A DNA stretch of 64,000 bases from Megamonas funiformis. GTDB lineage: Bacteria > Bacillota > Negativicutes > Selenomonadales > Selenomonadaceae. The stretch is taken from contig NZ_CP048627.1 in the NCBI RefSeq assembly GCF_010669225.1, forward strand, positions 2,431,292 to 2,495,291. The letters are read 5' to 3'. The notes below the pieces were generated by a model. It saw only the letters and a list, made by a program, of their open reading frames with translations, did not search any database and was not told the origin of the DNA. Of the stretch, positions 2,531 through 21,391 are shown in pieces (positions within the stretch are counted from its first letter, which is position 1; every line of letters begins with the position of its first letter). The position numbers and the translations under genes were made by a program.

Positions 2531-2558
2531 AGAAAAAGCTCTAGTAGGTAGCTAGAGC
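2531..2558 (-). terminator. Terminator of the Ssp-type defence operon
   Basis: On the minus strand a GCTCTAG/CTAGAGC stem (2552-2558 with 2538-2544, loop 2545-2551) runs into TTTTTCTTTT. It lies about 70 bp beyond the last gene of the defence operon and marks its 3' boundary. Confidence 0.75.
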
Positions 2559-2629
2559 CTATTAATTATATTAATTAGAAAATTTTATCACTATAGTATA
2601 CAAAAAATATAAATCTATTGTATGAAAAT

Positions 2630-3163
2630 TCAATCAGATATTTCTTTTAAAAGTTGTTTCTCATCAAATTTTATTTTTAATAAATAAAAATCTTTTATTA
2701 AAGCTTTCATTTTCACAATAACATCATCATCATTTATACAATTTTTAAAATATCGAGAATAAATTTCTTCTATTCCACCATAAAAATATGAATTAAATAT
2801 TTCTATATTCTCTTTCATTTCATTTGCTTTTTCTTCTGCATAATATCCATTTTTAAAAGAAAAAACTCTTTTTATTTTCTCTTCTTTAGATAAATTTAAA
2901 CTATTATCTAGTAAAAGAACCATTTTTAAAATATTTAAACAGTATTCACTATTATTACTGAACATATCTGTAAATATACTTTGAGTTTCCCTTACACTAA
3001 CATCTTTTTCACTTTTTAAATCAAAACACGCACCATATAATGCACATTGTAAATATACATCATATAATCTTCCAAAAACTTTTTTCTCTTTTAGTTCTTT
3101 CATATATTGTGCATGTTTTCCTTTTATAACAGTTTGTTCTTTAAACCAACATATTCTTTCCAT
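2630..3163 (-). CDS. Unknown protein, last gene of the phosphorothioation defence operon
   Basis: The product is a 177-residue soluble protein with no signal peptide or membrane segment. It appears mostly alpha-helical, with charged helices rich in Lys and Glu. The stretch VFGRLYDVYLQCALYG (about residues 28-44) faintly recalls the start of small dnd-system-associated proteins, but I cannot assign a family. It starts 10 bp after the stop of the DndD-like gene, with GAGG eleven bases before its ATG, so it belongs to the same transcript. Position argues for a role with the SMC-like ATPase. It could be an effector subunit, a specificity factor or an immunity partner. No catalytic motif is evident. 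Confidence 0.6.
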   Translation of the reverse strand: MERICWFKEQTVIKGKHAQYMKELKEKKVFGRLYDVYLQCALYGACFDLKSEKDVSVRETQSIFTDMFSNNSEYCLNILKMVLLLDNSLNLSKEEKIKRVFSFKNGYYAEEKANEMKENIEIFNSYFYGGIEEIYSRYFKNCINDDDVIVKMKALIKDFYLLKIKFDEKQLLKEISD

Positions 3164-3173
3164 AATTATTCCT

Positions 3174-5168
3174 CTATAAATTATTTAATTCAATCAATGA
3201 TGTCTTTATTTCTGAATATTTTTCTAGCTTATATTTTCTTCCAATTCTTTTTTCTAAATAAGCTTCTGCATATTTATAATCCTTCTGCATAACAAACATA
3301 ATCACTTGTTCTGCAACATCTGGTAAAACTTTTGAAATCTTCGCCGTATGACCTTCATCTGCATTTGAAAAAGGTGCATCCATTACTAACGGATAAGGCT
3401 CTGATGATAAATCTATAAAATCATCTCCTGCCTTACTAACTATTTTTTCTTTTGCTAAAGATACTAATCCGCCAATAAATGCAAAATTTTTAACCCTATC
3501 TAGTCCCTCTGATTTTCCTGTATCATATTCATTATCTAATACCTTAGTTATTAAATTCACTTTATATTTATCATCAATCTTAACTATTCTTTCGCCAGAA
3601 TAAATTTGATTAAAAATATCATTTACCTTTTTTTCTAATCTTTCTTTTATTTCTTTTGCTTTTTCTTTTTGATTTTCTTCAATCCATTCTAATAAAGCTT
3701 CAGCATAATTTATATATCTATATATTTTTCTATTATGATCAGTTTTACTTATTAATTTTGATTGTTGTTTTTCTAATATTTCTTTACTTTTTTCACATTT
3801 CCCTTTATTTTCTTTTAATATATCTATCTTTTCTTGCAAATATCTTATTTTTGAACGACATTCATCCCTCTCAAATTCATATTTTCGCATATCATCTTTA
3901 TCTCTTATTGTTTTACGTATTTCTTCTATCCTACATATCTTATCTTCAATATTTTTTTGTAACCTTAATCTATTTTCATACTTCTTTTCAAATTCTTCAA
4001 TATTAGCATAAATATTTTTTTCTCTTATTTCTAATTCATATTTAAATTTTTTTATTTCATCATAAAGATTATCTCCTGAAATTTTTTGTATCTCTTTTAA
4101 AATATAATTATACTCTGATGAATCTTTTTTTACAGAATTACCACATATGCATATTCCTCTATCTAATATCTTTCTTAAGATATGTTCCGATAAACCAGAT
4201 ATTCTATCATCTTTTAAATTCAAAGTATTTATATAAGATAAGCTTTCTTTCATTAAAGGTTTTTCAAAGTATGCTTTTGTTAATCTATGAAAATAATTAT
4301 ATATTTCTGTTTTATTTTCTTCTAAATTCTTCTCATTATTTTTAATTTCATTTTCTAATCTTTTTTCATCTTCTTGCATTCTTTTTGTATCTGCATTAGC
4401 ATGAATGATTTTATCTAATTCTTCCTTTCTATTCTCATATTTTTCTTTATTTTTTTTTGTTTCTTTTATCTGTTCATCAATATTTTGTAACTTTAATTCA
4501 TTATCTTGAATTTTTTGTTCTATTTCAGCACTATCTTGTTCATTATCTGTATCTAATTCCTGCTGAAATTTACCTATAACAGAATCTCTTCTATTCTTCG
4601 TTCCTAAGTGTTCTATTGTTTTTGATAATGCCGATAAACCTAATAATCCTTTTACTGCTTCTGTAACATTTTCCTTATGGCTAATACTATTAACACGTTC
4701 TGTATCAAAAAAGAAATATGTAGATAAATCTTTTGGTAAAATATCATTTATCCATGTTTCCGGAGAATCATCTAATGACACTTGATTACCTGTTTCATTT
4801 TTATACCATACTTTTAAAGGAAACTCATTAACTAATACAGTTTTTCCATTAATCTTTTTATATTCTTGCTTTCTAATAATTCCATATTCAGTATTTTCAT
4901 GTATAATAATAATTTCTACACTTACAATGTTTGTTGATCCATTAAGCATTTCTTCACTAAGCTCATAATTTAATAAAAATTTAGGATTATGATCAAAATT
5001 TACTGTTTTATAAAAACACCAACTAAATGCTTGTAATAATGTAGTTTTTCCGTATGTATTATCACCCAAAATAATAGTTACATTTTTTTGCGGATCATAT
5101 GAAAAATTTATATTTATATCTCCTTTAAATTGTCTAAAATTTTTTAATTTAAGAGACTTTATTAACAT
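3174..5168 (-). CDS. DndD-like SMC/Rad50-type ATPase of the phosphorothioation system
   Basis: This 664-residue ABC/SMC-family ATPase is of the kind used by DNA phosphorothioation systems to sense or remodel DNA. The Walker A GDNTYGKTT lies at residues 35-43. The motif FFFDTERV near 152-159 corresponds to the FFFDGE signature of DndD. Two long Lys/Glu-rich coiled-coil arms (about 205-300 and 350-520) flank a CIC pair at residues 340-342, in the place of a Rad50 zinc hook. The ABC Walker B/D-loop region LVMDAPFSNAD is near 594-604. The ATG follows GAGGTGATAAT, which overlaps the stop of the 53-aa gene upstream. In a locus with SspABCD it probably belongs to the restriction half. Which SspF/G/H letter it takes I cannot say from sequence. 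Confidence 0.82.
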   Translation of the reverse strand: MLIKSLKLKNFRQFKGDININFSYDPQKNVTIILGDNTYGKTTLLQAFSWCFYKTVNFDHNPKFLLNYELSEEMLNGSTNIVSVEIIIIHENTEYGIIRKQEYKKINGKTVLVNEFPLKVWYKNETGNQVSLDDSPETWINDILPKDLSTYFFFDTERVNSISHKENVTEAVKGLLGLSALSKTIEHLGTKNRRDSVIGKFQQELDTDNEQDSAEIEQKIQDNELKLQNIDEQIKETKKNKEKYENRKEELDKIIHANADTKRMQEDEKRLENEIKNNEKNLEENKTEIYNYFHRLTKAYFEKPLMKESLSYINTLNLKDDRISGLSEHILRKILDRGICICGNSVKKDSSEYNYILKEIQKISGDNLYDEIKKFKYELEIREKNIYANIEEFEKKYENRLRLQKNIEDKICRIEEIRKTIRDKDDMRKYEFERDECRSKIRYLQEKIDILKENKGKCEKSKEILEKQQSKLISKTDHNRKIYRYINYAEALLEWIEENQKEKAKEIKERLEKKVNDIFNQIYSGERIVKIDDKYKVNLITKVLDNEYDTGKSEGLDRVKNFAFIGGLVSLAKEKIVSKAGDDFIDLSSEPYPLVMDAPFSNADEGHTAKISKVLPDVAEQVIMFVMQKDYKYAEAYLEKRIGRKYKLEKYSEIKTSLIELNNL

Positions 5169-5177
5169 ATTATCACC

Positions 5178-5339
5178 TCATTCATTTACTATATCTATAA
5201 TTGCTCGACGAATATATTCTATCATTTCATTTTTTGTTTTTTTTCTTGTTCTCAAATTTCTTTTTTCTTCAAACAAAACTTTTAATTTTAACTGATTTAA
5301 TTTATTAATATCTACATCTTCCTTATTTTCAAATGACAT
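5178..5339 (-). CDS. 53-aa small protein inside the phosphorothioation operon
   Basis: This short gene encodes 53 residues, starting MSFENKED and ending IIDIVNE. Its ATG overlaps the end of the helicase gene by 11 bp and is preceded by a strong GAGGAGG nine bases upstream. Its stop overlaps the ribosome site of the DndD-like gene, so translation is probably coupled on both sides. It has an acidic N-terminus, a very basic middle (KRNLRTRKKTKNE) and a predicted C-terminal helix (EYIRRAIIDIV). The basic strand plus helix could form a small DNA-binding or ribbon-helix-helix-like unit, but that is inference. Size and position suit the small proteins that accompany DNA-modification systems. It is about half the length of DndE and shows no clear DndE motif. 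Confidence 0.65.
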   Translation of the reverse strand: MSFENKEDVDINKLNQLKLKVLFEEKRNLRTRKKTKNEMIEYIRRAIIDIVNE

Positions 5340-7515
5340 TTTTATCTACCTCCTCTTCATTTAACCTAATATCATATGAAGCTAAAATATCATATATTAA
5401 TTCATCATTAATGTATGGATTTTCTGAAAGATTATTAAAATCTTGCATACGAATAATTTCTCTTTTTACTAAACCTTTCACATTATTAACAATATCATTA
5501 GAGTATATATTTACTTCTTCTAATGATATTGGTAAGGTAATAAAATCATATATTTTAGCAAATTTTTTTCCTTTAAATTTTCTAAGTACTCTTCCTCTTC
5601 TTTGTATATATTCTTTAGGATTCGTACTACTAGCTAATATAAATGCCGTTTCAATACTAGGAATATTTACGCCTTCATCTAAACATCTAATAGCTACTAA
5701 AGCCTGAATAAAATCCCCATCTTCAAAAGCTTTTTTTATATTTTCTCTATCTTTTATTGTTTCTTTAGATGTAAACTGACATACTTTCATATCTAATGTA
5801 TTACCTAATATATTAGTTACTGCATCAATTTGACGCACCTCTTCTGCATCTATAGTATTCTCGTCATAATCAAAATCATTTATGGTTGTCGCTCCACAAT
5901 ACACTAATATATGATTATTATTTTTATAATCTAACATTATTTTCTTTAATTCTATTAACTTATTCTTAGCTCCTGCAACCAATCTAGCTCTCTTTATTAA
6001 TAACATTTTTTCATAATCACTTAACTTAATATATTTTTTATCTTTACTTCTATGTTGATTTATAGATGTTACTAATTTCTTTGTTAACTCAATATAACTA
6101 GATAATTCTGATTCGTCTAAAGTAATTACTATAGGATAATAATAATATGGTGTAAGCATATTATTATTAATAGCTTCTTTTAAAGTGTACTCAATACATT
6201 TTTTTCCAAAATAAGCATATAATCTTTCTGTTCCTTCTATATCACCATGTCTTTCTAATGTGGCAGACAGAGCTAATCTATATGGTATGTTATCAAGTAA
6301 AGCTCTATTTAAATTTTTAGCTCCAAAATTATGAGCTTCATCTATAACTAATAAAATATTTCCCTTTAAAGATTTTATTTGCTTTTGTAAAAAATTGCTA
6401 GAAAATGTTGCATTTGTTGTTACTATACAAAAAAAGTTTAAAAGATTTAAATTATAATTTTTTATAGAAATTTTAACATTATCTTTCCAATTTTTCTGTT
6501 GAGAAGCTGAATAACAAACAATAGGATTTACACCAAATTTTTTTATATCTACAACCCATTGCTCAACTAAATGTTGATAAGGACAAACTATTATAACAGC
6601 TATATTTCTATTAAGATTATTATATATATTTTCAATAGCTGCTAAAGCAGTATATGTTTTACCTGTTCCTGTTGCCATATCAAAAATACCACAGTAATTA
6701 TTCAACTTCCAATTATTAATAGCTTCTTTTTGATAACTATATAACGAAATATCTTTTGGAATTTGTATATCTATTTTTTCATCTCTATTTACATCTTTTA
6801 AATTAATATATTCTTTATCATCTATTTTGAAATCTACTGTTTTTTTCTTATATTTTTCAATTATTAATTTAGAAAGCTTAGGAAACTCTACTACTTTAAT
6901 ATTTTGTTCATTATTATTCCAAATAGATGTAAAAGCTTTTTCTTTTAGAGTTACTCTTTCTACTTCACTTTGCTTCCAGTTACAAAAAACATCTATTGTT
7001 TCATAATTAGCAGACATTGCTGTTGCAGATTCATTCATAGAACCAGAAAAAACTACTTTATTTCCTTCAAAATCTTCTATAATACCCATTTTTTCATGAT
7101 ACATTCCAATAATACCATCTTTTTCCATATAAGCTATTTTTATATCTAAAATATTATCTGAAATTAAATGTGCTAATAAATTTAATCGTTCTAATGAATA
7201 ATAATCTACCGGTTTAGTTGTTATTTGACGTAATAATGCATTTTCTATTATTTTATCTCTTTCATCATATCCTTTTTTTATAGCCATAACATCTTCATCT
7301 GATAAATGCGGAGAAGCAACAATACATATTTTTCCTCCATTTAATACCAAATTAGATATACCTTTTGATATTTCTATTAAAGCAGTCGATGAAAAAAATC
7401 CTACTGCTCTTCTATATATTTTAGCTTCACTTAATAAAGGAATATAAAATTCTGTGATTACATTATCAATTAAAGATCTATATTCTGTTTTTATTACACA
7501 ATCTTTTAAACTCAT
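5329..7515 (-). CDS. PLD-family nuclease fused to SF2 helicase (restriction component)
   Basis: This large effector of about 728 residues has an N-terminal phospholipase-D-like nuclease domain. A single HEK motif (H140-x-K142) is followed by FSGSMNES, like the restriction-type PLD domains that dimerise to form one active site. An SF2 helicase follows, with MATGTGKT (about 281-288), DEAH (about 392), LSATLERHGD and QRRGRVLRK (motif VI). The likely role is ATP-driven translocation and cleavage of invading DNA. ATG 7515 sits 12 bp after the sspA stop. A GTG at 7524 is in frame but has no ribosome site. It lies downstream of sspDBCA in the place where PT-dependent restriction genes are found, and no DUF262-type SspE is present. 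Confidence 0.85.
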   Translation of the reverse strand: MSLKDCVIKTEYRSLIDNVITEFYIPLLSEAKIYRRAVGFFSSTALIEISKGISNLVLNGGKICIVASPHLSDEDVMAIKKGYDERDKIIENALLRQITTKPVDYYSLERLNLLAHLISDNILDIKIAYMEKDGIIGMYHEKMGIIEDFEGNKVVFSGSMNESATAMSANYETIDVFCNWKQSEVERVTLKEKAFTSIWNNNEQNIKVVEFPKLSKLIIEKYKKKTVDFKIDDKEYINLKDVNRDEKIDIQIPKDISLYSYQKEAINNWKLNNYCGIFDMATGTGKTYTALAAIENIYNNLNRNIAVIIVCPYQHLVEQWVVDIKKFGVNPIVCYSASQQKNWKDNVKISIKNYNLNLLNFFCIVTTNATFSSNFLQKQIKSLKGNILLVIDEAHNFGAKNLNRALLDNIPYRLALSATLERHGDIEGTERLYAYFGKKCIEYTLKEAINNNMLTPYYYYPIVITLDESELSSYIELTKKLVTSINQHRSKDKKYIKLSDYEKMLLIKRARLVAGAKNKLIELKKIMLDYKNNNHILVYCGATTINDFDYDENTIDAEEVRQIDAVTNILGNTLDMKVCQFTSKETIKDRENIKKAFEDGDFIQALVAIRCLDEGVNIPSIETAFILASSTNPKEYIQRRGRVLRKFKGKKFAKIYDFITLPISLEEVNIYSNDIVNNVKGLVKREIIRMQDFNNLSENPYINDELIYDILASYDIRLNEEEVDKNVI

Positions 7516-7527
7516 TTTAACCACACT

Positions 7528-8673
7528 CTACATGTTATCTTCTATAACTTCTAAAGCTTTTTCCAGTTCTTCAAAATCTTTATCTGATGTAAAATAATTA
7601 ACACTAAACCTTATAGTTCCAGATGGATAAGTATCCATAAATTGATGTGCTAAAGGAGCACAATGTAAACCTGTTCTAACAGCTATATTAAATTTATTAA
7701 AAATATTACTAGCACTATCACTACTAATTCCATCAATTAAACAAGATACAATTCCAACATATCCAGCTGATTCTCTATTTCCTATAATTTTTATAAACCA
7801 GAATTGCTCTAAAATCTCAATTAATCTTTTTCTTTTTTCTGTTTCTGTTTTAAATAATGTAGATATTCCTTTTTCGTCTATCCAACTTAATGCCGCATTT
7901 AATCCAGCTATTCCCAGGATATTTAATGTTCCAGCTTCAAAATGTTCTGGTAAATTATTTGGCATATCTTGATTAGCAGATTCAAATCCTGTTCCACCAA
8001 AAATAATAGTTGGTATTTGTATATCTGGATTCATAACAAATCCAGATATACCTGTTGGTCCATATAAAGTTTTATGCCCTGCAAATACAGCAAAATCAAA
8101 AATAGATAATCCTACATTACAATCTATTAAACCAGCTGTTTGTGCCATATCTACTAAAGTAATAGCATCATATAATTTAGCAAGTTCAAATATTTTTTCC
8201 ACAGGTGCGATTAGCCCAAAAGAATTACTAGCATGACTAACAATAACAAAATCTGGTGCAATTTTATCAAATTGATATTTTATACGTATTAAATCATATT
8301 CCATATCTTTCGAAACATTTAATGTATGAACTTTTATAACATTTTTCTTTTCATAATAATTTAATACTCTAGTTACTGCATTGTGTTCAAATGGACTAAT
8401 GTATATATTTTTAGCTCCATTTAAAATAACTCCTTGTATGATTAGATTTAATGATATCGTTGCCGTAGGTTCAAATATTACTTGCTTATTAGGACAATGC
8501 AACAAATTTTTTAATTTATTTCTAGTATCTATTATTAAATTATTAGCCTTTTGAGATAAACTATATTGACCTCTTCCAACACTAAATCCATAATTACGAT
8601 AAAAATCATTCATAAAACTATATACTATTTCTGGTTTTGGATACGTTGTTGCTGCATTATCAAAATAAGCCAT
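7528..8673 (-). CDS. sspA: Cysteine desulfurase, sulfur donor for DNA phosphorothioation
   Basis: A PLP-dependent desulfurase that takes sulfur from L-cysteine and forms a persulfide for transfer to the PP-loop sulfurtransferase. The 381-residue protein begins MAYFDNAATTYPKP, typical of fold-type I desulfurases. The PLP lysine is K201 in AGHKTLYGPTG, and the catalytic cysteine is C338 in RTGLHCAP, the compact class-II-like loop rather than the longer IscS loop. A longer in-frame reading exists upstream, but AGGAGG overlapping the sspC stop is well spaced for ATG 8673. The operon position and lack of isc/suf genes nearby support a dedicated DNA-modification role. A general Fe-S or other sulfur-trafficking role remains possible. 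Confidence 0.87.
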   Translation of the reverse strand: MAYFDNAATTYPKPEIVYSFMNDFYRNYGFSVGRGQYSLSQKANNLIIDTRNKLKNLLHCPNKQVIFEPTATISLNLIIQGVILNGAKNIYISPFEHNAVTRVLNYYEKKNVIKVHTLNVSKDMEYDLIRIKYQFDKIAPDFVIVSHASNSFGLIAPVEKIFELAKLYDAITLVDMAQTAGLIDCNVGLSIFDFAVFAGHKTLYGPTGISGFVMNPDIQIPTIIFGGTGFESANQDMPNNLPEHFEAGTLNILGIAGLNAALSWIDEKGISTLFKTETEKRKRLIEILEQFWFIKIIGNRESAGYVGIVSCLIDGISSDSASNIFNKFNIAVRTGLHCAPLAHQFMDTYPSGTIRFSVNYFTSDKDFEELEKALEVIEDNM

Positions 8674-8684
8674 TATAAAACCTC

Positions 8685-11600
8685 CTAACAAAGTTCTTTT
8701 AAAACCTCTATTAAAACTTGTCTTTTTTCTTGCTCTGAAATAGATTGTCCCATAGAATCTATTTCTCCCCAAATGGAATTATATAACAATTTTCCTAAAG
8801 AACCATATTCTACTTTTTCAAATCTTTTTATAATATTATTTCCATCATTATCAATAAAAGTTAATTGATACGAGTTCACATCTCTACTATTTTTTTCTAA
8901 ATTACATTCATCTTTAAATGTATATTCTTCAGCGGTCTTCTTATAAATCTCTAATTGTTCCTTAAAACGAGTAATAGTTTGATAATCCCAATCTTCAATT
9001 CTTAAATCTGTAGCAATTTTAGCTAATTTAGAAATACATTCTGTTTCATCATTTGTTACTTCCTTAAATAATTTCAAACATCGTTCTGTCCCATTTTTAA
9101 ATAACTGCTCATATATTTTAGGATTAAGTGTCTCACACCAATCTTTTATAACTGATGTTAATGATATTTGTTTTATATATTTTTCATTATTTTTTAATAT
9201 ATATTTTTGTTTTACTATATAAATTAATTCATTCTTTAAATCTTCTAAAAGATTATCATAGTAGTTTTTTAAATTAATAACTTTATTAGCTAAATCTCTA
9301 TTAATTTTATTTTCAAAGCCTAATATTAATGGCATCTTTTCAAATAATAATTCATAACTACCTACATTATATTTTAAAATTTTAATAAAAGAAATATATT
9401 GTTTATCTAGTCTTTTACCAGAAGGTAACTCTTTTAATTCTCTTGAATATTTAGGAAGATTTACATACCATCTCTTAATTGCAGATACAAGATAATCATA
9501 AGAATTATTATTTATCTCTTCTTTTACTATAAAAGAAGAAAATGCTTTAGACAAAATTTTTATAAATATTTCTTTATCTTCATTCCAATCAGCATATTGT
9601 AAATAAAATTCTTTTGGTTTGGCATTTATTTGTAATAAAGTATCTGCATTTATATTAACTTGTCCTTTTTGATTTGTAACAATCAAATACTTTTTATATT
9701 CATGAAAAACTATTGATATAAAAATAGGAATTAATCCTTTTCTTAATCCAATATGCATTTTATATGATATTAACTGTTCATATAAATATTCAAAAGAGGT
9801 TTTTCCATTATTTTTAACAAACAATATAAAATCAGAAATAACTTTTAACAAATTAGCTATGTTTTTATCTTTAGGAAACATATTAATTTTAACAATATTA
9901 TTTTCTTTTACTAAGATATTTGTTCTAAGTAATGTACTACGCATTATAGATACTTCTTGTCCATTACCTGTTAGACCTAAATTTTCATCTAATTCATTAT
10001 GAAGTAATGCTGCAATAACTTTATGCCTACTATTATTTGCAATAGATGTTAATTCATTTCTATTAATAGATTCATTATTTATTACAGGTGTTCTAAAATA
10101 CAATTTATCGCATATACTTGACAATAATTCTGTTAAAGTTGCTTTTCTATTTATTTTTTGTTCTTTACCCAAATAAATATACTTAGCAGATAACCTTTCA
10201 GGATGTGTATATTCTAATATATAATCTATTAAAACATCCTTTAAATCTTCATAAATAATATCATATTCTTCAAATAAAACTTTATCATTTATTGCATTAT
10301 CTTTTAATATAGATACAGCATTAAACTCTTTAACTACATTCGTTATATCATTAAAATTTTTCAATAATATAAATATACATCGTTGAGCATTTTTACTAGT
10401 AATAATTATTTTATCTTCAATTTGTTTAATATCATCATTATTATTTAGTATAATAGCATATATTACACCATCTGCCTCTATTAACTCACTTTTAATATTC
10501 CAATCTGTATCATTACTTATCTCACTAGAGTTGATAAATTCAAAAGAAAAAAATCTTACCATCTCTTTATCATCATTATATCGAGATGGATACATGTATT
10601 TATCAAAATTTATGTTATTTAACGTATCTTTTATTAAATTTTTATTAGTTTGTAAAGCTATTTTGTTTTTTATCTGTTCTTTTATATCTATTCCTGAAGA
10701 TTTTTTTAATTGTAGATATTTATTACTTCTTTTTAAATAAATAACATATTCTTTTTCAATTAAATTATCTATAGCTAATTCTATATCTTTTTGATCATAA
10801 TTTATTGAAAAAATATTCATTATCTCATCTTTTGTTGGTTTTAATTTTTCAAACTGCTCTAAAATATACATTAAAGAAATCGTTTTTATTATTTTACTTT
10901 CTAATGATAATTCATTTCCTATTTTATCTAAAATAATACCTGTTAAAATATATACATTATATGTTACCTCAGAATATATTTCTTTTTTTAATAATGGTTC
11001 AAAATAATCAAATATAACATCTGGAGTTATTACATCAAATCTTTCATCATTATATTTATCTAAAAATGATGGCAATGTTGAAATTCCATTTGATGAAAGG
11101 AATGTAAATAAAGTTCGTTCATTCTGAGCAATTCTTTCAGATAATCTAGGCAAAATAAACGTTGATACTGGATGTAAAGGATAAGAAGAATAAATTATTT
11201 TATTTATATCATTTTTCTCTATTTCAGAAAAAATTGCATGAAATTTATATTGATCTATTAAATTCTTAAAATATTTTTTATGTTCATCTTTAAAAATCTT
11301 CCATAATAATTGATCTTTTTTTATAACATTAGCTATAACTTCATAAGTTTGTGAAAAATTATTATTTAAATGGACATGTGTAAATCGTTCAGAAACACCT
11401 CGCCAACCATCAATCTTTTGTTTGGGTAGTTTATCTATATAATTAGATATTTCTTTATGTGAAATTAATATTAAATGTAATTGTTCTTCTCCACTTCTAT
11501 TACATTTTTCTGCAAAATCTTGTAGCATTTTTGTATCACTTACAGATGCTTCCATTATATTGGCTTCTAAAAATTTACTAAATTCATCATAAACAACTAT

Positions 11601-12311
11601 AATACCTGTATAACCTTTTTTCTTAATACCTTTTAATGCACTTTCATATAACTCAACCACATCAAAACCTAAAAAAGGATTAAATGTACTTCCCGCTGTT
11701 AAAGATGGATATATTTTCTCAAAATTTTCATATATACTAATATCAAAATTTTCAAGAGCCTCAATATATTTATTAATAGGCATATCTATCTTTTCTATAA
11801 ATTCATTATAAGTAAATGAAAAATCTTTTTTCCATCTGTCAATAACACTAATAGCAGCTTTATAATTTGTTTCTGGCATTGCATCTAATAAATCATACTC
11901 AGACAAAGTTCTCTGTAAAGCTAACAAAAAAGCTTGTGGTATACTTGTATTACTGCCAGATATTATGACAGGTAATATTTTACTATTTGTATCATAATAA
12001 TTTTTTATATATTTATATCTGTCAGAATTACTTTCTATCTCAGGTAATAATCTTTCAAATAAAGATATATCTTTCTTCATTAGTATTGATAAAATCATCA
12101 ATACTATATGTGATTTACCTTTCCCATAAGCTCCTATTAAAACCCTTGCTCTATCAGTTGAAGTGTTTCTTGTACTTAATAAAATATCTTCTAATAAATC
12201 TAATGCAACTTTTGTTGGTATAAAATTTCTTAATTTATTATCATCATTTAAATCATATGCAATATTAACAGAATACTGAAATCCTGATGCAACCGATATC
12301 ATTTTACTCAT
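8685..12311 (-). CDS. sspC: Large P-loop ATPase of the Ssp phosphorothioation system
   Basis: This 1208-residue cytoplasmic ATPase has an N-terminal P-loop GAYGKGKSH (residues 60-68) and Walker B IIVVYDEF (236-243). The N-terminal third resembles the large ATPases of BREX and phosphorothioation systems. The rest (about 400-1208) is helical and has no motif I recognise. Its ATG follows AGGAGA by seven bases and is 16 bp after sspB. Position between a DUF4007 gene and a cysteine desulfurase, beside a PP-loop gene, identifies it as SspC, thought to drive the modification complex on DNA. Assignment rests mainly on synteny plus the P-loop. Very high A+T and Lys/Ile/Asn use match the other genes of the island. 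Confidence 0.78.
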   Translation of the reverse strand: MSKMISVASGFQYSVNIAYDLNDDNKLRNFIPTKVALDLLEDILLSTRNTSTDRARVLIGAYGKGKSHIVLMILSILMKKDISLFERLLPEIESNSDRYKYIKNYYDTNSKILPVIISGSNTSIPQAFLLALQRTLSEYDLLDAMPETNYKAAISVIDRWKKDFSFTYNEFIEKIDMPINKYIEALENFDISIYENFEKIYPSLTAGSTFNPFLGFDVVELYESALKGIKKKGYTGIIVVYDEFSKFLEANIMEASVSDTKMLQDFAEKCNRSGEEQLHLILISHKEISNYIDKLPKQKIDGWRGVSERFTHVHLNNNFSQTYEVIANVIKKDQLLWKIFKDEHKKYFKNLIDQYKFHAIFSEIEKNDINKIIYSSYPLHPVSTFILPRLSERIAQNERTLFTFLSSNGISTLPSFLDKYNDERFDVITPDVIFDYFEPLLKKEIYSEVTYNVYILTGIILDKIGNELSLESKIIKTISLMYILEQFEKLKPTKDEIMNIFSINYDQKDIELAIDNLIEKEYVIYLKRSNKYLQLKKSSGIDIKEQIKNKIALQTNKNLIKDTLNNINFDKYMYPSRYNDDKEMVRFFSFEFINSSEISNDTDWNIKSELIEADGVIYAIILNNNDDIKQIEDKIIITSKNAQRCIFILLKNFNDITNVVKEFNAVSILKDNAINDKVLFEEYDIIYEDLKDVLIDYILEYTHPERLSAKYIYLGKEQKINRKATLTELLSSICDKLYFRTPVINNESINRNELTSIANNSRHKVIAALLHNELDENLGLTGNGQEVSIMRSTLLRTNILVKENNIVKINMFPKDKNIANLLKVISDFILFVKNNGKTSFEYLYEQLISYKMHIGLRKGLIPIFISIVFHEYKKYLIVTNQKGQVNINADTLLQINAKPKEFYLQYADWNEDKEIFIKILSKAFSSFIVKEEINNNSYDYLVSAIKRWYVNLPKYSRELKELPSGKRLDKQYISFIKILKYNVGSYELLFEKMPLILGFENKINRDLANKVINLKNYYDNLLEDLKNELIYIVKQKYILKNNEKYIKQISLTSVIKDWCETLNPKIYEQLFKNGTERCLKLFKEVTNDETECISKLAKIATDLRIEDWDYQTITRFKEQLEIYKKTAEEYTFKDECNLEKNSRDVNSYQLTFIDNDGNNIIKRFEKVEYGSLGKLLYNSIWGEIDSMGQSISEQEKRQVLIEVLKELC

Positions 12312-12327
12312 CTATAATTCTCCTAGT

Positions 12328-13218
12328 TTATATTTCAATATTTTTATAGTATGTTTCTATACATTCTTGAAAAGTTCTATCATTATTAATACGAATAACA
12401 TCTAACCCTGCTGTTCTAATAATTTTAATTTCTCCTATTTTCTCTACTTTATGCAATAACTCTAATAAACTAATCGAATCTAAATTAAAAATTCTTCCAA
12501 TATTACATGGTGCTATCAATAAATCATTCAAATTAATTTCCCTTTTTCCTTTAGATTGTTCAATAATTATCGCTAATATAATCCATGGATCAAAATCTTT
12601 TATTATTGGTGTAGTTTTTCTATATATCTTTTTCTCTTTATTTAAAATATCAATTAATCCTAATTCACCTAATGGACAATCTATATTATTTTCAGGGGAT
12701 ATTTTACCTGTATGTGTCTTATATCTTGATAAATACGTATTAACAATACATAAAAAATCATCATTTAAGGATCTCAATGCAACAGAAAAATTTTCATCAT
12801 TCATTAAAACAAAATTTTCTAAACTTCTCACAAAATCTTCTTTAGTAAATTCAGACATAAAAAATTCATTAAAGAAAAAATACCATGCTGTTGCATTTTC
12901 TTTATTAGTAGCTAATTTATATTGTAACAAATGTAATGTTCCTAGCTCTTCAATATATCTATCATGAACAAAAACACTTTTTCCTAGCTCTGTAAGTGTC
13001 TGTATACGTTGTCCTGATTTATTTTCTTCTGTTAATCCTACTACTTGCAACCAATATCTTAATGACTTCACCATATTAGCTCCAATACCTAATATATCCA
13101 TAGGATTTTCATTTTTATCTACAAAAACATTAGGTTTTCTATAAACATATTTCATTCCCTTATTAAGCCAACCTTTTCGTATAAAAAAAGTATCATGAGC
13201 TCGAAACTTCATTTTCAT
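12328..13218 (-). CDS. sspB: DUF4007 protein, SspB (DNA-nicking subunit of phosphorothioation)
   Basis: The 296-residue protein opens with the DUF4007 signature: FRAHDTFFIRKGWLNKG (residues 5-21), then LGIGANMVKSLRYWLQ near 43-58. In characterised Ssp systems the DUF4007 protein SspB nicks DNA so that sulfur can be placed in one strand. That role is from family knowledge, and no nuclease triad can be confirmed by eye. The C-terminal part (about 190-296) looks like a winged-helix or other small DNA-contact domain. GGGGGT lies eight bases before ATG 13218. A second ATG two codons later is also possible. The gene is 20 bp after sspD and 16 bp before sspC, as expected for a co-translated modification module. 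Confidence 0.85.
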   Translation of the reverse strand: MKMKFRAHDTFFIRKGWLNKGMKYVYRKPNVFVDKNENPMDILGIGANMVKSLRYWLQVVGLTEENKSGQRIQTLTELGKSVFVHDRYIEELGTLHLLQYKLATNKENATAWYFFFNEFFMSEFTKEDFVRSLENFVLMNDENFSVALRSLNDDFLCIVNTYLSRYKTHTGKISPENNIDCPLGELGLIDILNKEKKIYRKTTPIIKDFDPWIILAIIIEQSKGKREINLNDLLIAPCNIGRIFNLDSISLLELLHKVEKIGEIKIIRTAGLDVIRINNDRTFQECIETYYKNIEI

Positions 13219-13238
13219 AAATTATACCCCCAAATAAT

Positions 13239-14954
13239 TTATTTTGTACGTAAATACTTATCCATCATACATCCACCTTCTAAGTATTTTGCTGTAACAC
13301 ACATTTTACATCTAATACATTTATTAGAATCTATGTTATATGTTCCAGCGATAATAGAAATAGCTCCTGCTTTACATAAAGATTCACATTTTAAACATTT
13401 TCTGCATGCATTAAACTTTCTTACTTGATATTGAATCATACGTTGTAATTTTTCATGATCTGCTACATTCATAGTTTTTATTTTTACAGCATACTCATAT
13501 TTTTCTTCTCCAAAAGGTTGAATGGATATAATTGGTACATTAGTTTTTACATCTAATATTAAAATTTCATTTAATATTTTTTGACCTAAATCTCTAGATA
13601 TTTTTCCTAATGGTGTAAACATCCCTATTAATTCATCATCAAAAGGTTTTACTAATTTATATATTTTAGCATTATCTTCTGTTGTGCAATTTGTAAATTT
13701 TATCTTTACATCATTTGCAGATACTAAACCATTTCCACCTTGTCTAGCTTTCCATTTTCCTGTATCAACATATACTTCTGGATCTGGTTTTCCTATTTTT
13801 CTCGCAAAATCAATAAGAAAATCTCTCCATTTCTTAGACTGTTCTGGCATATATATTTTAGATAAGAATTGTGCCCTTTGTGTATTATTTGGGCAACACC
13901 AACAACCTACACGATCATACCCTAATCTATAGGCATCATTAAAATCAATTTTTTCACTAAAAATATACAACCAAATATCAATATCTTTCCAAAAAAATAT
14001 TGGTGAAGCCACCGTTTGTTGTTGTATTTTAACTGATTCTGCATTATTTTCTACTCTATTATATTTACTTCTACTAACAGATTCTGATTTTCTAACACCA
14101 TAAAACGTTAAAATTTGTTGATTCCTATACAGATTATTAATAATTCTAGTTATTGGTCCTGTTTTAAACATTGAACAACACCATCTCATCATTCTTGCTG
14201 GTGGACCAATATCTGAACATACATTATAAAAATCTTGTTCACGATTTTTAGCAATTTTAAAGATTGACATCATATGTGCCTTTCTATATCTAGATACATA
14301 ATCTTGAGTAAATGGAAATTCTAATGTAGTATCTCCAAAAATATGAACTAATCTAGGATTACTCAAAGCTTTTATTACAATATCTGATGTAACTGTTGAA
14401 TCTTTTCCTCCAGAAAAAGACAATACTATATTTTCTATTTTATATTTACTAGAAACATTTTTTATAAATAAAAAAGCTTCTTCTTTCAAAGCATTTAATC
14501 GTAATATATTAGCTTTAATAAAACGCTCAATGTATTTATCAAAAAATATATAATTATTCTGTTCCATATATTTATCTATTTTTTTTATTACATCATCAAC
14601 ATTTATTTTATTAAATAACTTACTTGGTAAAATAAATGATTTCCCATCAATATAATATCTACTATTAGACGCCCAAACTGATGATTTTATAAATTGATTT
14701 GGTTTTTTCTCCAACAATATTTCTATTAATAAACGTTCTTCTGGAAAAACAGGTCTCAAATCTGCTGACATATATTTTATTTTAGTATTACAAACTGGAC
14801 ATATTCCTTTGTTTGCTTGTGTTTCATCTTGTATTATAGGTATTCTACAATCAGGACACCAATATATTTTAGCTGGAATATCTTCTATTGTCTTAGTATT
14901 ACAAATTGGACAATAATCTTCATTAGTCTCTATATTACATGTTTTACACCACAT
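13239..14954 (-). CDS. sspD: PP-loop (PAPS-reductase-like) sulfurtransferase with Zn ribbons and ferredoxin domain
   Basis: This is the likely sulfur-inserting enzyme of DNA phosphorothioation. It would activate the backbone phosphate with ATP and deliver sulfur from the desulfurase. The 571 residues read as two N-terminal zinc ribbons (CxxC pairs at 3/6, 15/18, 33/36 and 52/55), a PP-loop ATPase domain with SFSGGKDST at 179-187, a Cys-rich GCWCCPNNTQRAQF segment, and a C-terminal 2x[4Fe-4S] ferredoxin-like tail in the last 60 residues (CRKCLKCESLC and CIRCKMC). The PP-loop and WCC/CWCC motifs are those of PAPS reductase/DndC relatives. The first gene of the operon, it starts at ATG 14954 behind AAGGAGGG. 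The Zn-ribbon and Fe-S additions argue against ordinary sulfate assimilation, for which no cys genes are present. Confidence 0.87.
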   Translation of the reverse strand: MWCKTCNIETNEDYCPICNTKTIEDIPAKIYWCPDCRIPIIQDETQANKGICPVCNTKIKYMSADLRPVFPEERLLIEILLEKKPNQFIKSSVWASNSRYYIDGKSFILPSKLFNKINVDDVIKKIDKYMEQNNYIFFDKYIERFIKANILRLNALKEEAFLFIKNVSSKYKIENIVLSFSGGKDSTVTSDIVIKALSNPRLVHIFGDTTLEFPFTQDYVSRYRKAHMMSIFKIAKNREQDFYNVCSDIGPPARMMRWCCSMFKTGPITRIINNLYRNQQILTFYGVRKSESVSRSKYNRVENNAESVKIQQQTVASPIFFWKDIDIWLYIFSEKIDFNDAYRLGYDRVGCWCCPNNTQRAQFLSKIYMPEQSKKWRDFLIDFARKIGKPDPEVYVDTGKWKARQGGNGLVSANDVKIKFTNCTTEDNAKIYKLVKPFDDELIGMFTPLGKISRDLGQKILNEILILDVKTNVPIISIQPFGEEKYEYAVKIKTMNVADHEKLQRMIQYQVRKFNACRKCLKCESLCKAGAISIIAGTYNIDSNKCIRCKMCVTAKYLEGGCMMDKYLRTK

Positions 14955-14992
14955 TCTTTTCCCTCCTTAATATAAAATACCTAAACTATTCT

Positions 14993-14998
14993 ATTATA
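14993..14998 (-). promoter_or_regulatory. Probable -10 element of the ssp operon
   Basis: TATAAT reads on the minus strand 39 bases before the sspD ATG. No convincing -35 lies 16-18 bases upstream, so the promoter is weak or needs an activator. Confidence 0.4.
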
Positions 14999-15207: not shown

Positions 15208-15906
15208 TCAATCAAGCTTTAACATACGATAGCCAATCCCTATATGTGTTTGAATATATTCTGGATTAGCTGTATCTATTTCTATTTTCTTACGCAATGT
15301 TGCCATAAATACACGCAAAGAAGCTACATTATTATCCCAAGCATTACCCCATACTTCTCGTGTTATATAAGTATGCGTTAATACTTTGCCTATATTTTTA
15401 GCCAATAAACATAATAATTTATATTCAATCGGTGTTAAATGTAATTCTTTACCTCTACAATATGCACAACCAGATACATAATCTATCTTTAACTCGCCAT
15501 TAACAAATATACTATTTTCCTTATGCGGAGTTTGTACACAATTTATCCTGCGAATAGTAACTCTAAGTCTAGCTAAAAATTCTTCTACAGAAAAAGGCTT
15601 TGTTATATAATCATCTGCCCCAGCATCTAAAGCTTCAATTTTATCTCTATCTTCACATCTAGCACTAATTACAATAATTGGCATATTTGACCACGAACGA
15701 ACTTTTGTTATAATTTCTACCCCATCCATATCAGGAAGCCCCAAATCCAATAGCATAATATCTGGTTGATTTGATACTGCTTCTAATAAAGCCTGTGAGC
15801 CTGTAGTTGCTACGTGAAATTTATAATTTTGCATTTTTAATGTAGTAGATATTAAATTTCTAACTGCTGCATCATCTTCAACAATTAATATCATTGGCTT
15901 ATTCAT
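15208..15906 (-). CDS. kdpE: KdpE response regulator
   Basis: An OmpR/PhoB-family regulator that activates kdp genes when phosphorylated by KdpD under K+ limitation. The 232 residues comprise a receiver domain, with acidic pocket E10/D11/D12, phospho-acceptor D54 in MLLDLGLPD and the conserved Lys in YITKPFS, and a C-terminal winged helix from about residue 130 (LTPIEYKLLCLLA, REVWG, SLRVFMATLRKKIE). The ATG overlaps the end of kdpD, with GAGGAG ten bases upstream inside kdpD, so translation is coupled. Its likely target is the direct repeat upstream of kdpF. It is last in a kdpFABC-DE order. Confidence 0.95.
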   Translation of the reverse strand: MNKPMILIVEDDAAVRNLISTTLKMQNYKFHVATTGSQALLEAVSNQPDIMLLDLGLPDMDGVEIITKVRSWSNMPIIVISARCEDRDKIEALDAGADDYITKPFSVEEFLARLRVTIRRINCVQTPHKENSIFVNGELKIDYVSGCAYCRGKELHLTPIEYKLLCLLAKNIGKVLTHTYITREVWGNAWDNNVASLRVFMATLRKKIEIDTANPEYIQTHIGIGYRMLKLD

Positions 15907-18601
15907 TAAAATTAATCTCCTCTTTTGGTAACGTAAATATAAAAACTGTTCCTTGTGGTTTATTATCTCTTACCTTTATCTCTCCACCATGTGCCATAAT
16001 AATAGATTTACACAAACTAAGACCTATACCAATTCCTCTTCTACTATCAGCTACAGTAGAATTTGCTGTATAAAACATTTCAAAAAGCTTATCTTTTGCT
16101 TCATCACTAATGCCTTGACCATTATCTGCAATAGAAACTTCAATTTTATCACTTTTTATTTTTGCACTAATAGTAATAGTTGAGTCTTTTGGGGTATATT
16201 TTATGGCATTATCTATTATATTTATAAATACTTGTACTAATAAACGTGCGTCAACTTTTACCATCATTATATCTTTTGTTTCTTCAAAAACTATATGATG
16301 ATTTTTTCCTCGACGATATAAATGCTTTAAAGCTTCATTTATAATATCGTCTAATAACTCAGTTTGTAAGTTAATCTTCATCGTCTTATTTTCTATACGC
16401 GTAATAAATAAAATATTCTCTACTAAATTAATCAACCACATTGAATCATCATAAATATTATTATATAATTCCTGTCGTTTAACATCATCTATTTTAGCGC
16501 TATTACTTAATAAAAAGTCAGCATTACCAGAAATACTTGTAAGTGGTGTTCTTAAATCATGCGAAATTGAACGCAACAAATTTGACCTAAGCTGTTCATT
16601 TTTTGCTTGTAAATAAATTTCTTGACGCTTTTTACTATATATTTCTTTTTCTAAAGCTAATGCACATTCACCTAAAATAGATAAGACCAAATTATTTTCA
16701 AATACATCTAAATCCTCATTATCAATAGCTATACCTACGACACCATATACATTATCTTTAGAACGAATTGCCAAATACTGACATTTAGCATTATTTAATG
16801 TACCTGTTTTTACACCTGCTCGTTTATTATTTTTATAAACCCATTGTGCTACAGCTCTTTCATTACTATTTATCAATTGTTCTGTATGAACATCATTTTT
16901 TACATTATAAACAACAGGTGGCAATAAACCTTTTTTATCCGCACTATAATACACTATTGTTTTGTTTAACAATTTTAAAAGTTGATGAGATGTAACTGTT
17001 GCTATAGCTGCATCACTGCCTGCTTGTTGCAATAATTGATTTGTCTCTAATAATATTTTAGTTCGATAAGCTAATTTAGCAGACTGTATAGCTTGTTTTT
17101 TTATTTTATTAGTAAGACCTCCTGTAACAAAAGCTGATACAAACATTACAGAGAACGTAATAATATATACTGGGTCATATGCCGTAAAAGTATATCTAGG
17201 TTCAATAAATAAAAAATCAAATGCTAATACATTCAAAACAGATAATACTACACTATATAATCTCTTCGATGTTTTTAAGGCAGCAATTAATACACCTAAG
17301 ATATATACTGTCATGATATTAGCTTCGCCTAAATTCATTGAATAAAATAACATACCAATCATACTAGTTATTATTAAAATAACTAATATAGTTATAATAT
17401 CTGATGTATTACATATCTCTCTTTCATTTACGGATTTCTTCCAAAAATTTTTATAAAATAAAGCTTTATTATCTGGAATTACATGTATATCTAAATTCGG
17501 TAATTGTTCAATTAATTTATCGGTAAAAGATTTACGCATTAAACGCATAAATCCATTTCTAGCAATACTTCTTCCTATGACTAATTTTGATACACCAGCA
17601 AGTCTTGCAAATTCTGCTATTTGAAACGGTATGTCTTCTCCTACTACCATTTCAATTTTTGCTCCTAATTGCTCTGCTAAATGAATATTTTCCTTCAATC
17701 TTTTTTTATTTTCTAATGAAGTTTTTTCAAAACTTGATGTCTGCACAAATAAAGCTGTAAATTGAGCTTTAAAAGCATTTGCCATTCTTGCCGCTGTACG
17801 AATAATCTTAGAATTTGATGGCGATGATGATAAACATACTAAAATATGTTCATTCGTATAATAATCTTTATTATTTTCATTTTTAACCTTTAAAGATATT
17901 TTATTTACTCTATCAGCCATGCGACGAAGTGCAATTTCTCTAAGCGCTGTTAAATTTTCAACAGTAAAAAAATTCCCCAATGCCCTATCAGCTTGTTCTT
18001 TTTGGTAAATTTTTCCTTCTGATAAACGTGTTACTAAATCCGATGGTTCTATATCTACTAATTCCACTTGCTCAGCTTCATCAAAAATTCTATCTGGTAT
18101 ACGTTCTCTCACAATTATTTTGGTAATTGAAGCCACAATATCATTTAAGCTTTCTATATGTTGTACATTAATTGTTGTATATACATCAATGCCTGCTTTT
18201 AATAATTCTTCAATATCCTGATAACGTTTGATATGACGACAACCATCTGCATTTGTATGTGCTAATTCATCAACCAAAATTAATTGTGGATTTCTTTTTA
18301 TAGCTGCATCTAAATTAAATTCATTTAAAGTTATATCTTTATGATTAATCACTAATGGTGAAATTACTTCTAAACCATTAACTAAAGCTGCAGTTGCTGG
18401 TCTTGCATGAGGTTCTATATAGCCTGCTACTACATCAATTCCTTGCTTTTTGGCTTCATGTGCAGCTTCTAACATAGCATAAGTTTTACCAACACCTGCT
18501 GCATAGCCAAAAAATATTTTTAATTTTCCTCGTTTTGATTCATGCTCTTCTATATGAATTTGTTCCAAAATTTTCTCTGGCGATTTTCGTATAATTGGCA
18601 T
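15899..18601 (-). CDS. kdpD: KdpD sensor histidine kinase
   Basis: A membrane sensor of low K+ or osmotic stress that phosphorylates KdpE. The roughly 900-residue protein is the full-length form. In order it has an N-terminal KdpD domain with GYAAGVGKTYAMLEAA (P-loop) and AGYIEPHARP, a universal-stress-protein domain (about 235-370), a four-segment DUF4118 membrane region (about 400-500), a GAF-like region, HisKA with SISHDLRTPL (His near 680) and a HATPase domain (DNAIKYTP, ADNGQGIS, GIGIGLSL). GGGAGGGG seven bases before ATG 18601 fixes the start. An upstream in-frame reading to 18649 lacks a ribosome site and would cross the palindrome behind kdpC. Confidence 0.95.
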   Translation of the reverse strand: MPIIRKSPEKILEQIHIEEHESKRGKLKIFFGYAAGVGKTYAMLEAAHEAKKQGIDVVAGYIEPHARPATAALVNGLEVISPLVINHKDITLNEFNLDAAIKRNPQLILVDELAHTNADGCRHIKRYQDIEELLKAGIDVYTTINVQHIESLNDIVASITKIIVRERIPDRIFDEAEQVELVDIEPSDLVTRLSEGKIYQKEQADRALGNFFTVENLTALREIALRRMADRVNKISLKVKNENNKDYYTNEHILVCLSSSPSNSKIIRTAARMANAFKAQFTALFVQTSSFEKTSLENKKRLKENIHLAEQLGAKIEMVVGEDIPFQIAEFARLAGVSKLVIGRSIARNGFMRLMRKSFTDKLIEQLPNLDIHVIPDNKALFYKNFWKKSVNEREICNTSDIITILVILIITSMIGMLFYSMNLGEANIMTVYILGVLIAALKTSKRLYSVVLSVLNVLAFDFLFIEPRYTFTAYDPVYIITFSVMFVSAFVTGGLTNKIKKQAIQSAKLAYRTKILLETNQLLQQAGSDAAIATVTSHQLLKLLNKTIVYYSADKKGLLPPVVYNVKNDVHTEQLINSNERAVAQWVYKNNKRAGVKTGTLNNAKCQYLAIRSKDNVYGVVGIAIDNEDLDVFENNLVLSILGECALALEKEIYSKKRQEIYLQAKNEQLRSNLLRSISHDLRTPLTSISGNADFLLSNSAKIDDVKRQELYNNIYDDSMWLINLVENILFITRIENKTMKINLQTELLDDIINEALKHLYRRGKNHHIVFEETKDIMMVKVDARLLVQVFINIIDNAIKYTPKDSTITISAKIKSDKIEVSIADNGQGISDEAKDKLFEMFYTANSTVADSRRGIGIGLSLCKSIIMAHGGEIKVRDNKPQGTVFIFTLPKEEINFNE

Positions 18602-18641
18602 ATAAGCCCCTCCCAATTGCATATATGTTATAAACCAATAT

Positions 18642-18685
18642 ACCTCCACATCAAAATATATTTAATATATATTTGACGTGGAGGT
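18642..18685. repeat. 44-bp imperfect palindrome between kdpC and kdpD
   Basis: ACCTCCAC-x-TCAAA on one side (18642-18655) is mirrored by TTTGA-x-GTGGAGGT (18672-18685), with an A/T-rich palindromic centre, giving an almost 20-bp stem. No T-run follows on the minus strand, so it is not a classical terminator. It may stabilise the upstream kdpFABC mRNA end, reduce read-through into kdpDE, or be an operator. Confidence 0.7.
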
Positions 18686-18700
18686 TATCCCTTTAAAATA

Positions 18701-19291: not shown

Positions 19292-19307
19292 TACAAACTC
19301 ACCTTTC

Positions 19308-21374: not shown

Positions 21375-21391
21375 TATTTTTAGCACTCCCC

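What the first reader, a model, noticed from the sequence alone, without database searches (positions are those of the whole stretch)
2531..14998. Complete Ssp-type phosphorothioation island with an unusual effector half
Eight tightly packed minus-strand genes read PP-loop sulfurtransferase, DUF4007, large ATPase, cysteine desulfurase, PLD-helicase, 53-aa protein, DndD-like ATPase, 177-aa protein. The first four match SspD, B, C, A. SspE is absent; the rest resembles the described SspABCD-SspFGH layout but has two small genes I cannot place. That makes this the best candidate for a variant defence system. What is seen: motifs and operon structure. What is known: Ssp systems put sulfur in one DNA strand and restrict unmodified phage DNA.
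Basis: partly seen in the sequence, partly recalled or inferred. Interest (0 to 1): 0.85.

Follow-up and report, generated by a model that had tools for sequence, protein, structure and literature searches.

The report
Ssp sulfur-marking genes with Pbe effector
This is a complete eight-gene antiviral operon in which one known gene set that puts sulfur into the DNA backbone (Ssp) is joined to a known effector set (Pbe) that had been described with a different sulfur-marking set (Dnd); the pairing recurs in many anaerobic bacteria.

Summary
The eight-gene minus-strand operon (14954-2630, terminator-like hairpin 2560-2536) is real. Its first four genes are an Ssp-type phosphorothioation module: SspD in a long BrxP-like form with ferredoxin-type cysteines, SspB (DUF4007), SspC, SspA. 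The effector half is not SspFGH but PbeABCD: HKD-nuclease/helicase PbeA, the 53-aa PbeB, CxC ABC-ATPase PbeC and the 177-aa PbeD, whose predicted fold is closest to DndE. The papers I could search pair PbeABCD with Dnd or methylases and SspABCD with SspE or SspFGH; none describes SspABCD-PbeABCD. Yet in an even draw of 398 genomes of the phylum, Pbe is the commonest neighbour of DUF4007 modules (11 of 29; SspF-like genes 6 of 29). Each module is internally congruent, but the two are only weakly congruent with each other (rho 0.22), and one locus pair shares 92% of the modification proteins but 39% of Pbe, with the break just behind sspA: the effector is exchanged as a cassette. That host DNA carries the mark and that Pbe reads it is inferred from relatives, not shown here. 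New variant of a known kind, of moderate interest.

The parts
13239..14954 (-). sspD in its long BrxP-like form, 571 aa: N-terminal Cys pairs, PP-loop SGGKDS, C-terminal ferredoxin-type cysteines
   Evidence: PADLOC BrxP 269 bits, SspD 51 bits; eight C-terminal Cys identical in 57 of 57 complete loci
12328..13218 (-). sspB, DUF4007, 296 aa
   Evidence: PF13182 275 bits; SspB 194 bits; solved SspB 6juf/6lb9 E 1.5e-16
8685..12311 (-). sspC, 1208-aa ATPase
   Evidence: SspC 422 bits, BrxC 151 bits
7528..8673 (-). sspA, cysteine desulfurase, 381 aa from the ATG at 8673
   Evidence: TIGR01977 426 bits over cut-off, SspA 139 and DndA 130 bits; start
5329..7524 (-). pbeA, HKD (PLD-like) nuclease domain fused to SF2 helicase, 731 aa
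   Evidence: PbeA 813 bits; H143, K145, D151, G161, S162, N164, E165 identical in 13 of 13
5178..5339 (-). pbeB, 53 aa, overlaps pbeA by 11 nt
   Evidence: same position and family in 99 of 111 loci; predicted two-helix hairpin, pLDDT 81.8
3174..5168 (-). pbeC, CxC-type ABC ATPase, 664 aa
   Evidence: PbeC 372 bits; C340 and C342 identical in 57 of 57
2630..3163 (-). pbeD, DndE-like DNA-binding protein, 177 aa
   Evidence: model pLDDT 90.4; DndE entries Z 7.7, 6.9, 6.5, next entry 4.2; 22 of 40 relatives match TIGR04062
2536..2560 (-). terminator-like hairpin behind the operon

Best explanation
An Ssp-Pbe phosphorothioation-based antiviral operon. SspA takes sulfur from cysteine, the BrxP-like SspD activates and transfers it, and SspB with SspC find and open short motifs so that host DNA carries sulfur, probably on one strand. 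PbeC and the DndE-like PbeD, with PbeB, scan DNA; where phosphorothioate is missing they load or switch on PbeA, which halts replication of the invading DNA or cuts it. Shown here: gene identities, conserved key residues, operon structure, recurrence of the pairing, exchange of the Pbe set as a cassette. Inferred from studied relatives: that the host DNA is marked, on which strand, and that Pbe depends on the mark. Open: motif, and whether PbeA cuts or only stalls DNA.
For: Profile identities of six of the eight proteins. PbeB by position and family, PbeD by relatives and fold. Key residues conserved across 57 complete loci. The same gene order in 12 of 17 other PbeA loci of the family with SspC beside them, 11 of 22 PbeA genomes in the phylum draw, 66 of the best 80 named loci with Ssp genes near (biased query). 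PbeA and DUF4007 in the same genome in 13 of 398, 1.6 expected. Experiments by others: SspABCD marks DNA and PbeABCD gives PT-dependent protection when paired with DndCDEA (PMC6459918, passages; PMC9239217, passages).
Against: No PT measurement exists for this host. Pbe was studied only with Dnd. Rakesh et al. doubt that PbeABCD is the restriction partner of PT at all (PMC10853773 section 16). The two modules covary only weakly (rho 0.22, p 0.006), which a dedicated protein-protein partnership would not predict. PbeA is also found without Ssp or Dnd neighbours, e.g. beside radical-SAM genes.
Confidence: 0.7

Rival explanations
1. PbeABCD is not the reader of the mark. It is a stand-alone or suicide system (PbeB as a brake that a viral trigger releases) that merely lies beside an Ssp module in a defence hotspot.
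For: Proposed for CxC systems by Rakesh et al.. PbeA also occurs without PT genes nearby. Weak covariation between the modules. Own site is variable between two genomes of the genus.
Against: Strict order sspD-B-C-A-pbeA-B-C-D with gaps of a few nt in many phyla; 13 shared genomes against 1.6 expected, 11 of them adjacent; 49 of 51 Ssp-linked PbeA fall in one branch; archaeal Pbe needed PT.
Confidence: 0.17
2. A reduced type 4 BREX: the BrxP-like gene, DUF4007 and BrxC-like ATPase come from type 4 BREX, and Pbe replaces PglZ and BrxL.
For: ORF1 matches BrxP far better than SspD; ferredoxin-type SspD is shared with type 4 BREX (PMC12839542 section 34).
Against: SspC beats BrxC (422 against 151 bits); PglZ, retained in all taxa of that survey, has no match in the genome; the survey itself reports this SspD form in Ssp systems. 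No tree with named BREX and Ssp proteins was made, so origin is untested.
Confidence: 0.08
3. PbeC and PbeD steer the modification machinery to sites and are not part of an effector.
For: They are the relatives of DndD and DndE, which belong to the Dnd modification complex.
Against: SspC and SspB already fill these roles; in the archaeal study all four pbe genes were needed for defence while DndCDEA made the mark.
Confidence: 0.05

Closest known systems
DndCDEA-PbeABCD of Haloterrigena jeotgali A29 (PMC6459918, passages)
   Same: Effector half: PbeA, small PbeB, PbeC, PbeD in the same order; PT genes upstream
   Different: There the marking module is Dnd (DndC, D, E, A); here it is Ssp (SspD, B, C, A)
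SspABCD-SspE and SspABCD-SspFGH (PMC8092258, sections 5 part 1 and 9)
   Same: Marking half: SspB, SspC, SspD, SspA
   Different: Neither SspE nor SspFGH here; SspD is the long BrxP-like form; effector is PbeABCD
Type 4 BREX (PMC12839542, passages and section 34)
   Same: BrxP-like PAPS reductase with ferredoxin-type domain, DUF4007, BrxC-like ATPase, cysteine desulfurase in 56% of taxa
   Different: No PglZ in the genome and neither PglZ nor BrxL in the operon
CxC ABC ATPase-DndE systems (PMC10853773, passages, sections 16 and 17)
   Same: PbeC has the CxC pair, PbeD a DndE-like fold, with small protein and HKD-SF2 protein
   Different: Described there with DndD modules, methylases or alone; the passages read do not mention an Ssp module beside it

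Membership tests
SspABCD modification module | SspB (DUF4007) | tested here: met
   PF13182 275 bits, SspB 194 bits, solved SspB structures E 1.5e-16
SspABCD modification module | SspC ATPase | tested here: met
   SspC 422 bits, BrxC 151 bits; no PDB sequence match
SspABCD modification module | SspD sulfurtransferase | tested here: met
   PAPS_reductase domain; SspD model 51 bits over part of its length, BrxP 269 bits. The BrxP-like form is reported for a subset of SspD
SspABCD modification module | SspA cysteine desulfurase | tested here: met
   TIGR01977 over cut-off; C371 identical in at least 55 of 57 loci (98%)
SspABCD modification module | single-strand phosphorothioate in host DNA | not testable with these tools
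   needs LC-MS or PT sequencing
PbeABCD | PbeA: HKD nuclease fused to SF2 helicase | tested here: met
   813 bits; HKD-type residues invariant; PLDc_2 itself is under its Pfam cut-off (25.4 against 27)
PbeABCD | PbeB: small protein between PbeA and PbeC | tested here: met
   53 aa in place; family found in 99 of 111 loci; no library model matches it
PbeABCD | PbeC: ABC ATPase with CxC | tested here: met
   372 bits, CxC 57 of 57
PbeABCD | PbeD: DndE cognate | tested here: met
   VIA Z 7.7, 6.9, 6.5 to DndE, next 4.2 (Z under 8 may mean only a common arrangement); Foldseek ranks DndE first but at E 0.37; TIGR04062 in 22 of 40 relatives
PbeABCD | PT-dependent protection against viruses | not testable with these tools
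   needs phage assays
SspFGH | SspF, SspG, SspH genes | tested here: not met
   no such model among the rows shown for the eight proteins; no SspF in genome (no control rang)
SspE | GmrSD-family gene in the operon | tested here: not met
   none among the eight; only GmrSD_N match of the genome is 1.3 Mb away
BREX type 4 | PglZ | tested here: not met
   no match in the genome, controls rang in 2 of 14
BREX type 4 | BrxL | not tested
   no BrxL among the eight proteins; the genome was not searched for it
Dnd modification module | DndC in the genome | tested here: not met
   only the SspD/BrxP-like gene answers, 36.6 bits against a cut-off of 290

The most novel reading that the evidence does not exclude
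Ssp-Pbe is a leading phosphorothioate defence of anaerobic Bacillota and explains part of the 'orphan' sspBCD clusters. Its Pbe set is a swappable reader that recognises the mark itself (perhaps single-strand PT) rather than one marking complex or motif. A Pbe lineage specialised for Ssp exists, with its own conserved two-helix PbeB, which would be the adaptor that decides which kind of mark is read.
Probability: 0.35. Interest if true: 0.65.

Novelty: new variant of a known kind. Interest (0 to 1): 0.5.

Why it matters
The SspFGH paper found 2,211 of 2,678 sspBCD clusters (given as 83.9%) with neither SspFGH nor SspE and asked whether other restriction partners exist (section 9); the Pbe paper left 320 of 553 pbeAC without dndCD nearby. 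In an even draw from one phylum, Pbe is the commonest neighbour of DUF4007 modules (11 of 29), a candidate answer to both. Exchange of the Pbe set at a sharp border supplies natural pairs for asking what Pbe reads: the mark, its strand, its motif or a protein.

Tried and rejected
SspFGH reading: rejected. Type 4 BREX as a filing: rejected, though the SspD form is shared. Close covariation of the two modules: tried, not found. The PADLOC PbeA model matched 150 of 151 genomes and all 14 controls through its helicase part; I followed matches of E 1e-150 or better (19 places, the window's own included; the fragment G094:C282 was not fetched) plus one partial match, G127. phmmer of PbeC and SspC against the PDB gave one coiled-coil match and none. 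Promoter scan uninformative. Viral contigs was not scanned. Supplements, preprints and subscription papers were not seen; the SspABCD-SspE paper and the preprint on type 4 BREX phosphorothioation were seen only as citations.

Rows dropped or set by hand: L049 (G127, partial PbeA) left out of the family count, leaving 17. Seven loci were dropped from the covariation test and trees because their contigs have the same lengths as genome-contig loci (L032, L033, L034, L039, L074, L075, L080). The PbeB model used the longest ORF of each gap; two odd ORFs (L046, L120) and 13 named loci (12 of them with an ORF) were kept out. In the second tree every second Ssp-linked row and most unlabelled rows were thinned. 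My GmrSD model undercounts: Pfam finds a GmrSD in L080 that the model missed. The SspF-like label rests on phmmer with one sequence, 53-87 bits in five of six loci. L116 and L157 are both metagenome assemblies, so a chimeric contig cannot be excluded for that pair. The names HKD, PP-loop and SF2 for motifs, and TraY for 9f11_G, are recalled.

Full report
What is there. Eight intact, closely packed minus-strand ORFs run from 14954 to 2630, followed by a terminator-like hairpin at 2560-2536. sspA most likely starts at the ATG at 8673 behind AGGAGG. GC is 0.20-0.28 across the operon; the kdp-like genes on the right have 0.27-0.30, and sequence further out on both sides 0.30-0.37. In the one other genome seen from the genus (G007) the left neighbours RidA and small phosphatase are kept (90% and 83% protein identity), but an unrelated 867-aa P-loop protein gene stands beside the phosphatase; the right neighbours were not found in that 19.5-kb stretch. 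This fits an acquired island in a variable site (inference).

Marking half. ORF1 matches PADLOC BrxP (269 bits) far better than SspD (51) or DndC (47). It keeps SGGKDS and eight C-terminal cysteines across the 57 complete loci. PMC12839542 (section 34) says that this ferredoxin-type arrangement occurs in type 4 BREX and in a subset of SspD. ORF2 is DUF4007/SspB with solved SspB structures as sequence match, ORF3 SspC, ORF4 a cysteine desulfurase. PglZ, retained in all taxa of that BREX survey, has no match in the genome.

Effector half. ORF5 is PbeA (813 bits) and ORF7 PbeC (372 bits); PbeC has C340 and C342 in 57 of 57 loci, and PbeA keeps its HKD-type residues. ORF8 has only a weak match to TIGR04062, 'DNA phosphorothioation-associated protein 4', but 22 of 40 aligned relatives match that model, best E 2.9e-9. 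Its model (pLDDT 90.4) is closest to three DndE entries (Z 7.7, 6.9, 6.5; next entry 4.2). Z values under 8 may mean only a common arrangement, and Foldseek alone ranks DndE first at E 0.37. ORF6 lies in the PbeA-PbeC gap, 115-195 nt in the loci measured apart from L046, where PbeA is split. A model of it matches 99 of 111 loci (72 built it, 27 did not). None of the 12 misses has SspB or SspC beside it; two loci with a DndD-like neighbour (L168, L170) do match. Its predicted fold is a two-helix hairpin (pLDDT 81.8), whereas PMC10853773 calls this protein rapidly evolving and mostly disordered. The order is that of archaeal PbeABCD, whose PbeB and PbeD have 66 and 152 aa.

How common the pairing is. 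Family: of 17 other PbeA loci examined from 151 genomes, 12 have SspC beside them and 10 have all seven larger genes. Phylum: of 398 genomes drawn evenly, 22 have TIGR04095 at 1e-100 (only 1 over the curated cut-off), 11 of them with SspC beside it. From the other side 29 of the 398 have DUF4007 at 1e-10. Neighbourhoods, sorted by me: Pbe 11, PbeA fragments with GmrSD 1, SspF-like 6, GmrSD only 1, PbeA-like helicase without the nuclease half 2, a second SspB/SspC-like pair 2, no effector recognised 6 (three of these at contig ends, two decayed, and G235, which has Pbe on the same contig about 31 kb away). 13 genomes have both features, 1.6 expected, P 3e-11 (shared ancestry ignored). That scan is biased, because its query came from loci with SspB and SspC. 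Two alphaproteobacterial plasmids carry Pbe beside Ssp genes with a short SspD-like protein (L183, L191). Two scaffolds deposited as phage from human faeces hold all seven larger genes.

Cassette behaviour. Over 57 complete loci pairwise identities correlate at 0.89-0.96 within the marking module, 0.71-0.78 within Pbe, and 0.15-0.26 between them; Mantel rho 0.22, p 0.006, weak but not zero. L116 and L157 share 92% of the marking proteins and 39% of Pbe; DNA identity is 90-93% up to about 100 nt behind sspA and 66% from pbeA on. Of 28 pairs with marking identity of 0.70 or more, 11 have Pbe identity under 0.45 and 17 have 0.60 or more; of 74 pairs with Pbe identity of 0.60 or more, 10 have marking identity under 0.45. 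Exchange is thus frequent, not universal. In the first PbeA tree one branch (SH-aLRT 97) holds all 82 Ssp-linked rows and 15 unlabelled ones, with 4 Dnd- and 7 radical-SAM-linked rows outside. With plasmid rows added, 49 of 51 Ssp-linked rows share one branch (98) free of other labels, and L183 and L191 fall elsewhere on long, unsure branches. Other-label rows are few, and support is SH-aLRT only.

Add-ons. A GmrSD (SspE-family) gene joins the operon in relatives, between sspA and pbeA or behind pbeD: 11 of 17 family loci, 2 of 19 further phylum loci and 9 of 80 named loci by my model, which undercounts. The window has none. L097 carries Pbe next to SspF and SspG, and L135 has relatives of these genes.

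Mechanism. The marking chemistry and the PT dependence of Pbe come from work on other organisms. The archaeal study saw no cleavage of viral DNA; PMC10853773 argues for cleavage from the HKD domain. The sequence cannot decide. Weak covariation argues that Pbe reads the mark or DNA rather than a particular marking complex (inference).

In print or not. Searches: SspFGH, PbeABCD (10 papers; passages seen in 9, PMC9239176 not opened), BREX with phosphorothioat and PAPS reductase, SspB with PbeA, Pbe with Ssp, BREX and phosphorothio, DUF4007 with phosphorothio, DNA phosphorothioat with SspB from 2024. None of the passages seen describes SspABCD with PbeABCD. PMC11662687 names DndCDEA-PbeABCD, SspABCD-SspE and SspABCD-SspFGH. 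Against novelty: PMC7464106 (passages) scored pbeA-D in strains found with either dnd or ssp queries, so its counts may include such pairs unnamed; PADLOC already has models of most parts and a catch-all 'PT_other'; earlier mention in papers not held is possible.

Noticed in passing
L045 11723-12970, L047 13808-14983, L083 13586-15643, L085 3352-4836, L086 4276-6309, L088 5600-6856, L090 12233-13465: Seven PbeA-PbeC loci without Ssp genes carry related genes (one BLAST cluster); L083 and L088 members match Radical_SAM and L088 also B12-binding, L085 and L086 match radical-SAM models weakly, L045 and L047 have no model match, L090 only an unrelated weak one. A possible unknown DNA modification partner of Pbe; one paper search found no description.
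   Followed up: partly
L075 13562-14650, L077 13554-14654, L083 5132-8602: Sigma-70-like (MzaA-like) genes directly beside PbeABCD; plasmid records also annotate sigma-factor-like proteins beside Pbe.
   Followed up: no
L180 14001-25921 (Treponema saccharophilum plasmid pTS1): The same marking module, followed by separate helicase, ATP-binding protein (weakly MzaB-like) and PLD-family genes instead of PbeABCD: a further possible effector.
   Followed up: partly
L202 7711-12021, L207 12948-18341: A second, divergent SspB/SspC-like pair directly beside an Ssp marking module.
   Followed up: no
L178 (MT835506.1), L179 (MT835493.1): Two unverified 'Bacteriophage sp.' scaffolds from human faeces hold the complete Ssp-Pbe operon; phage cargo or host contamination was not decided.
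   Followed up: partly
G000:C1:1091624-1092283 (L171): The host genome has one GmrSD-type gene (597-aa frame) far from the operon; whether it acts with the Ssp marks is unknown.
   Followed up: no
window 15208-23215: Genes that look like kdpE, kdpD and kdpB/kdpA lie directly upstream of the operon (read by eye, not searched); the larger ORFs further on look like housekeeping genes.
   Followed up: no
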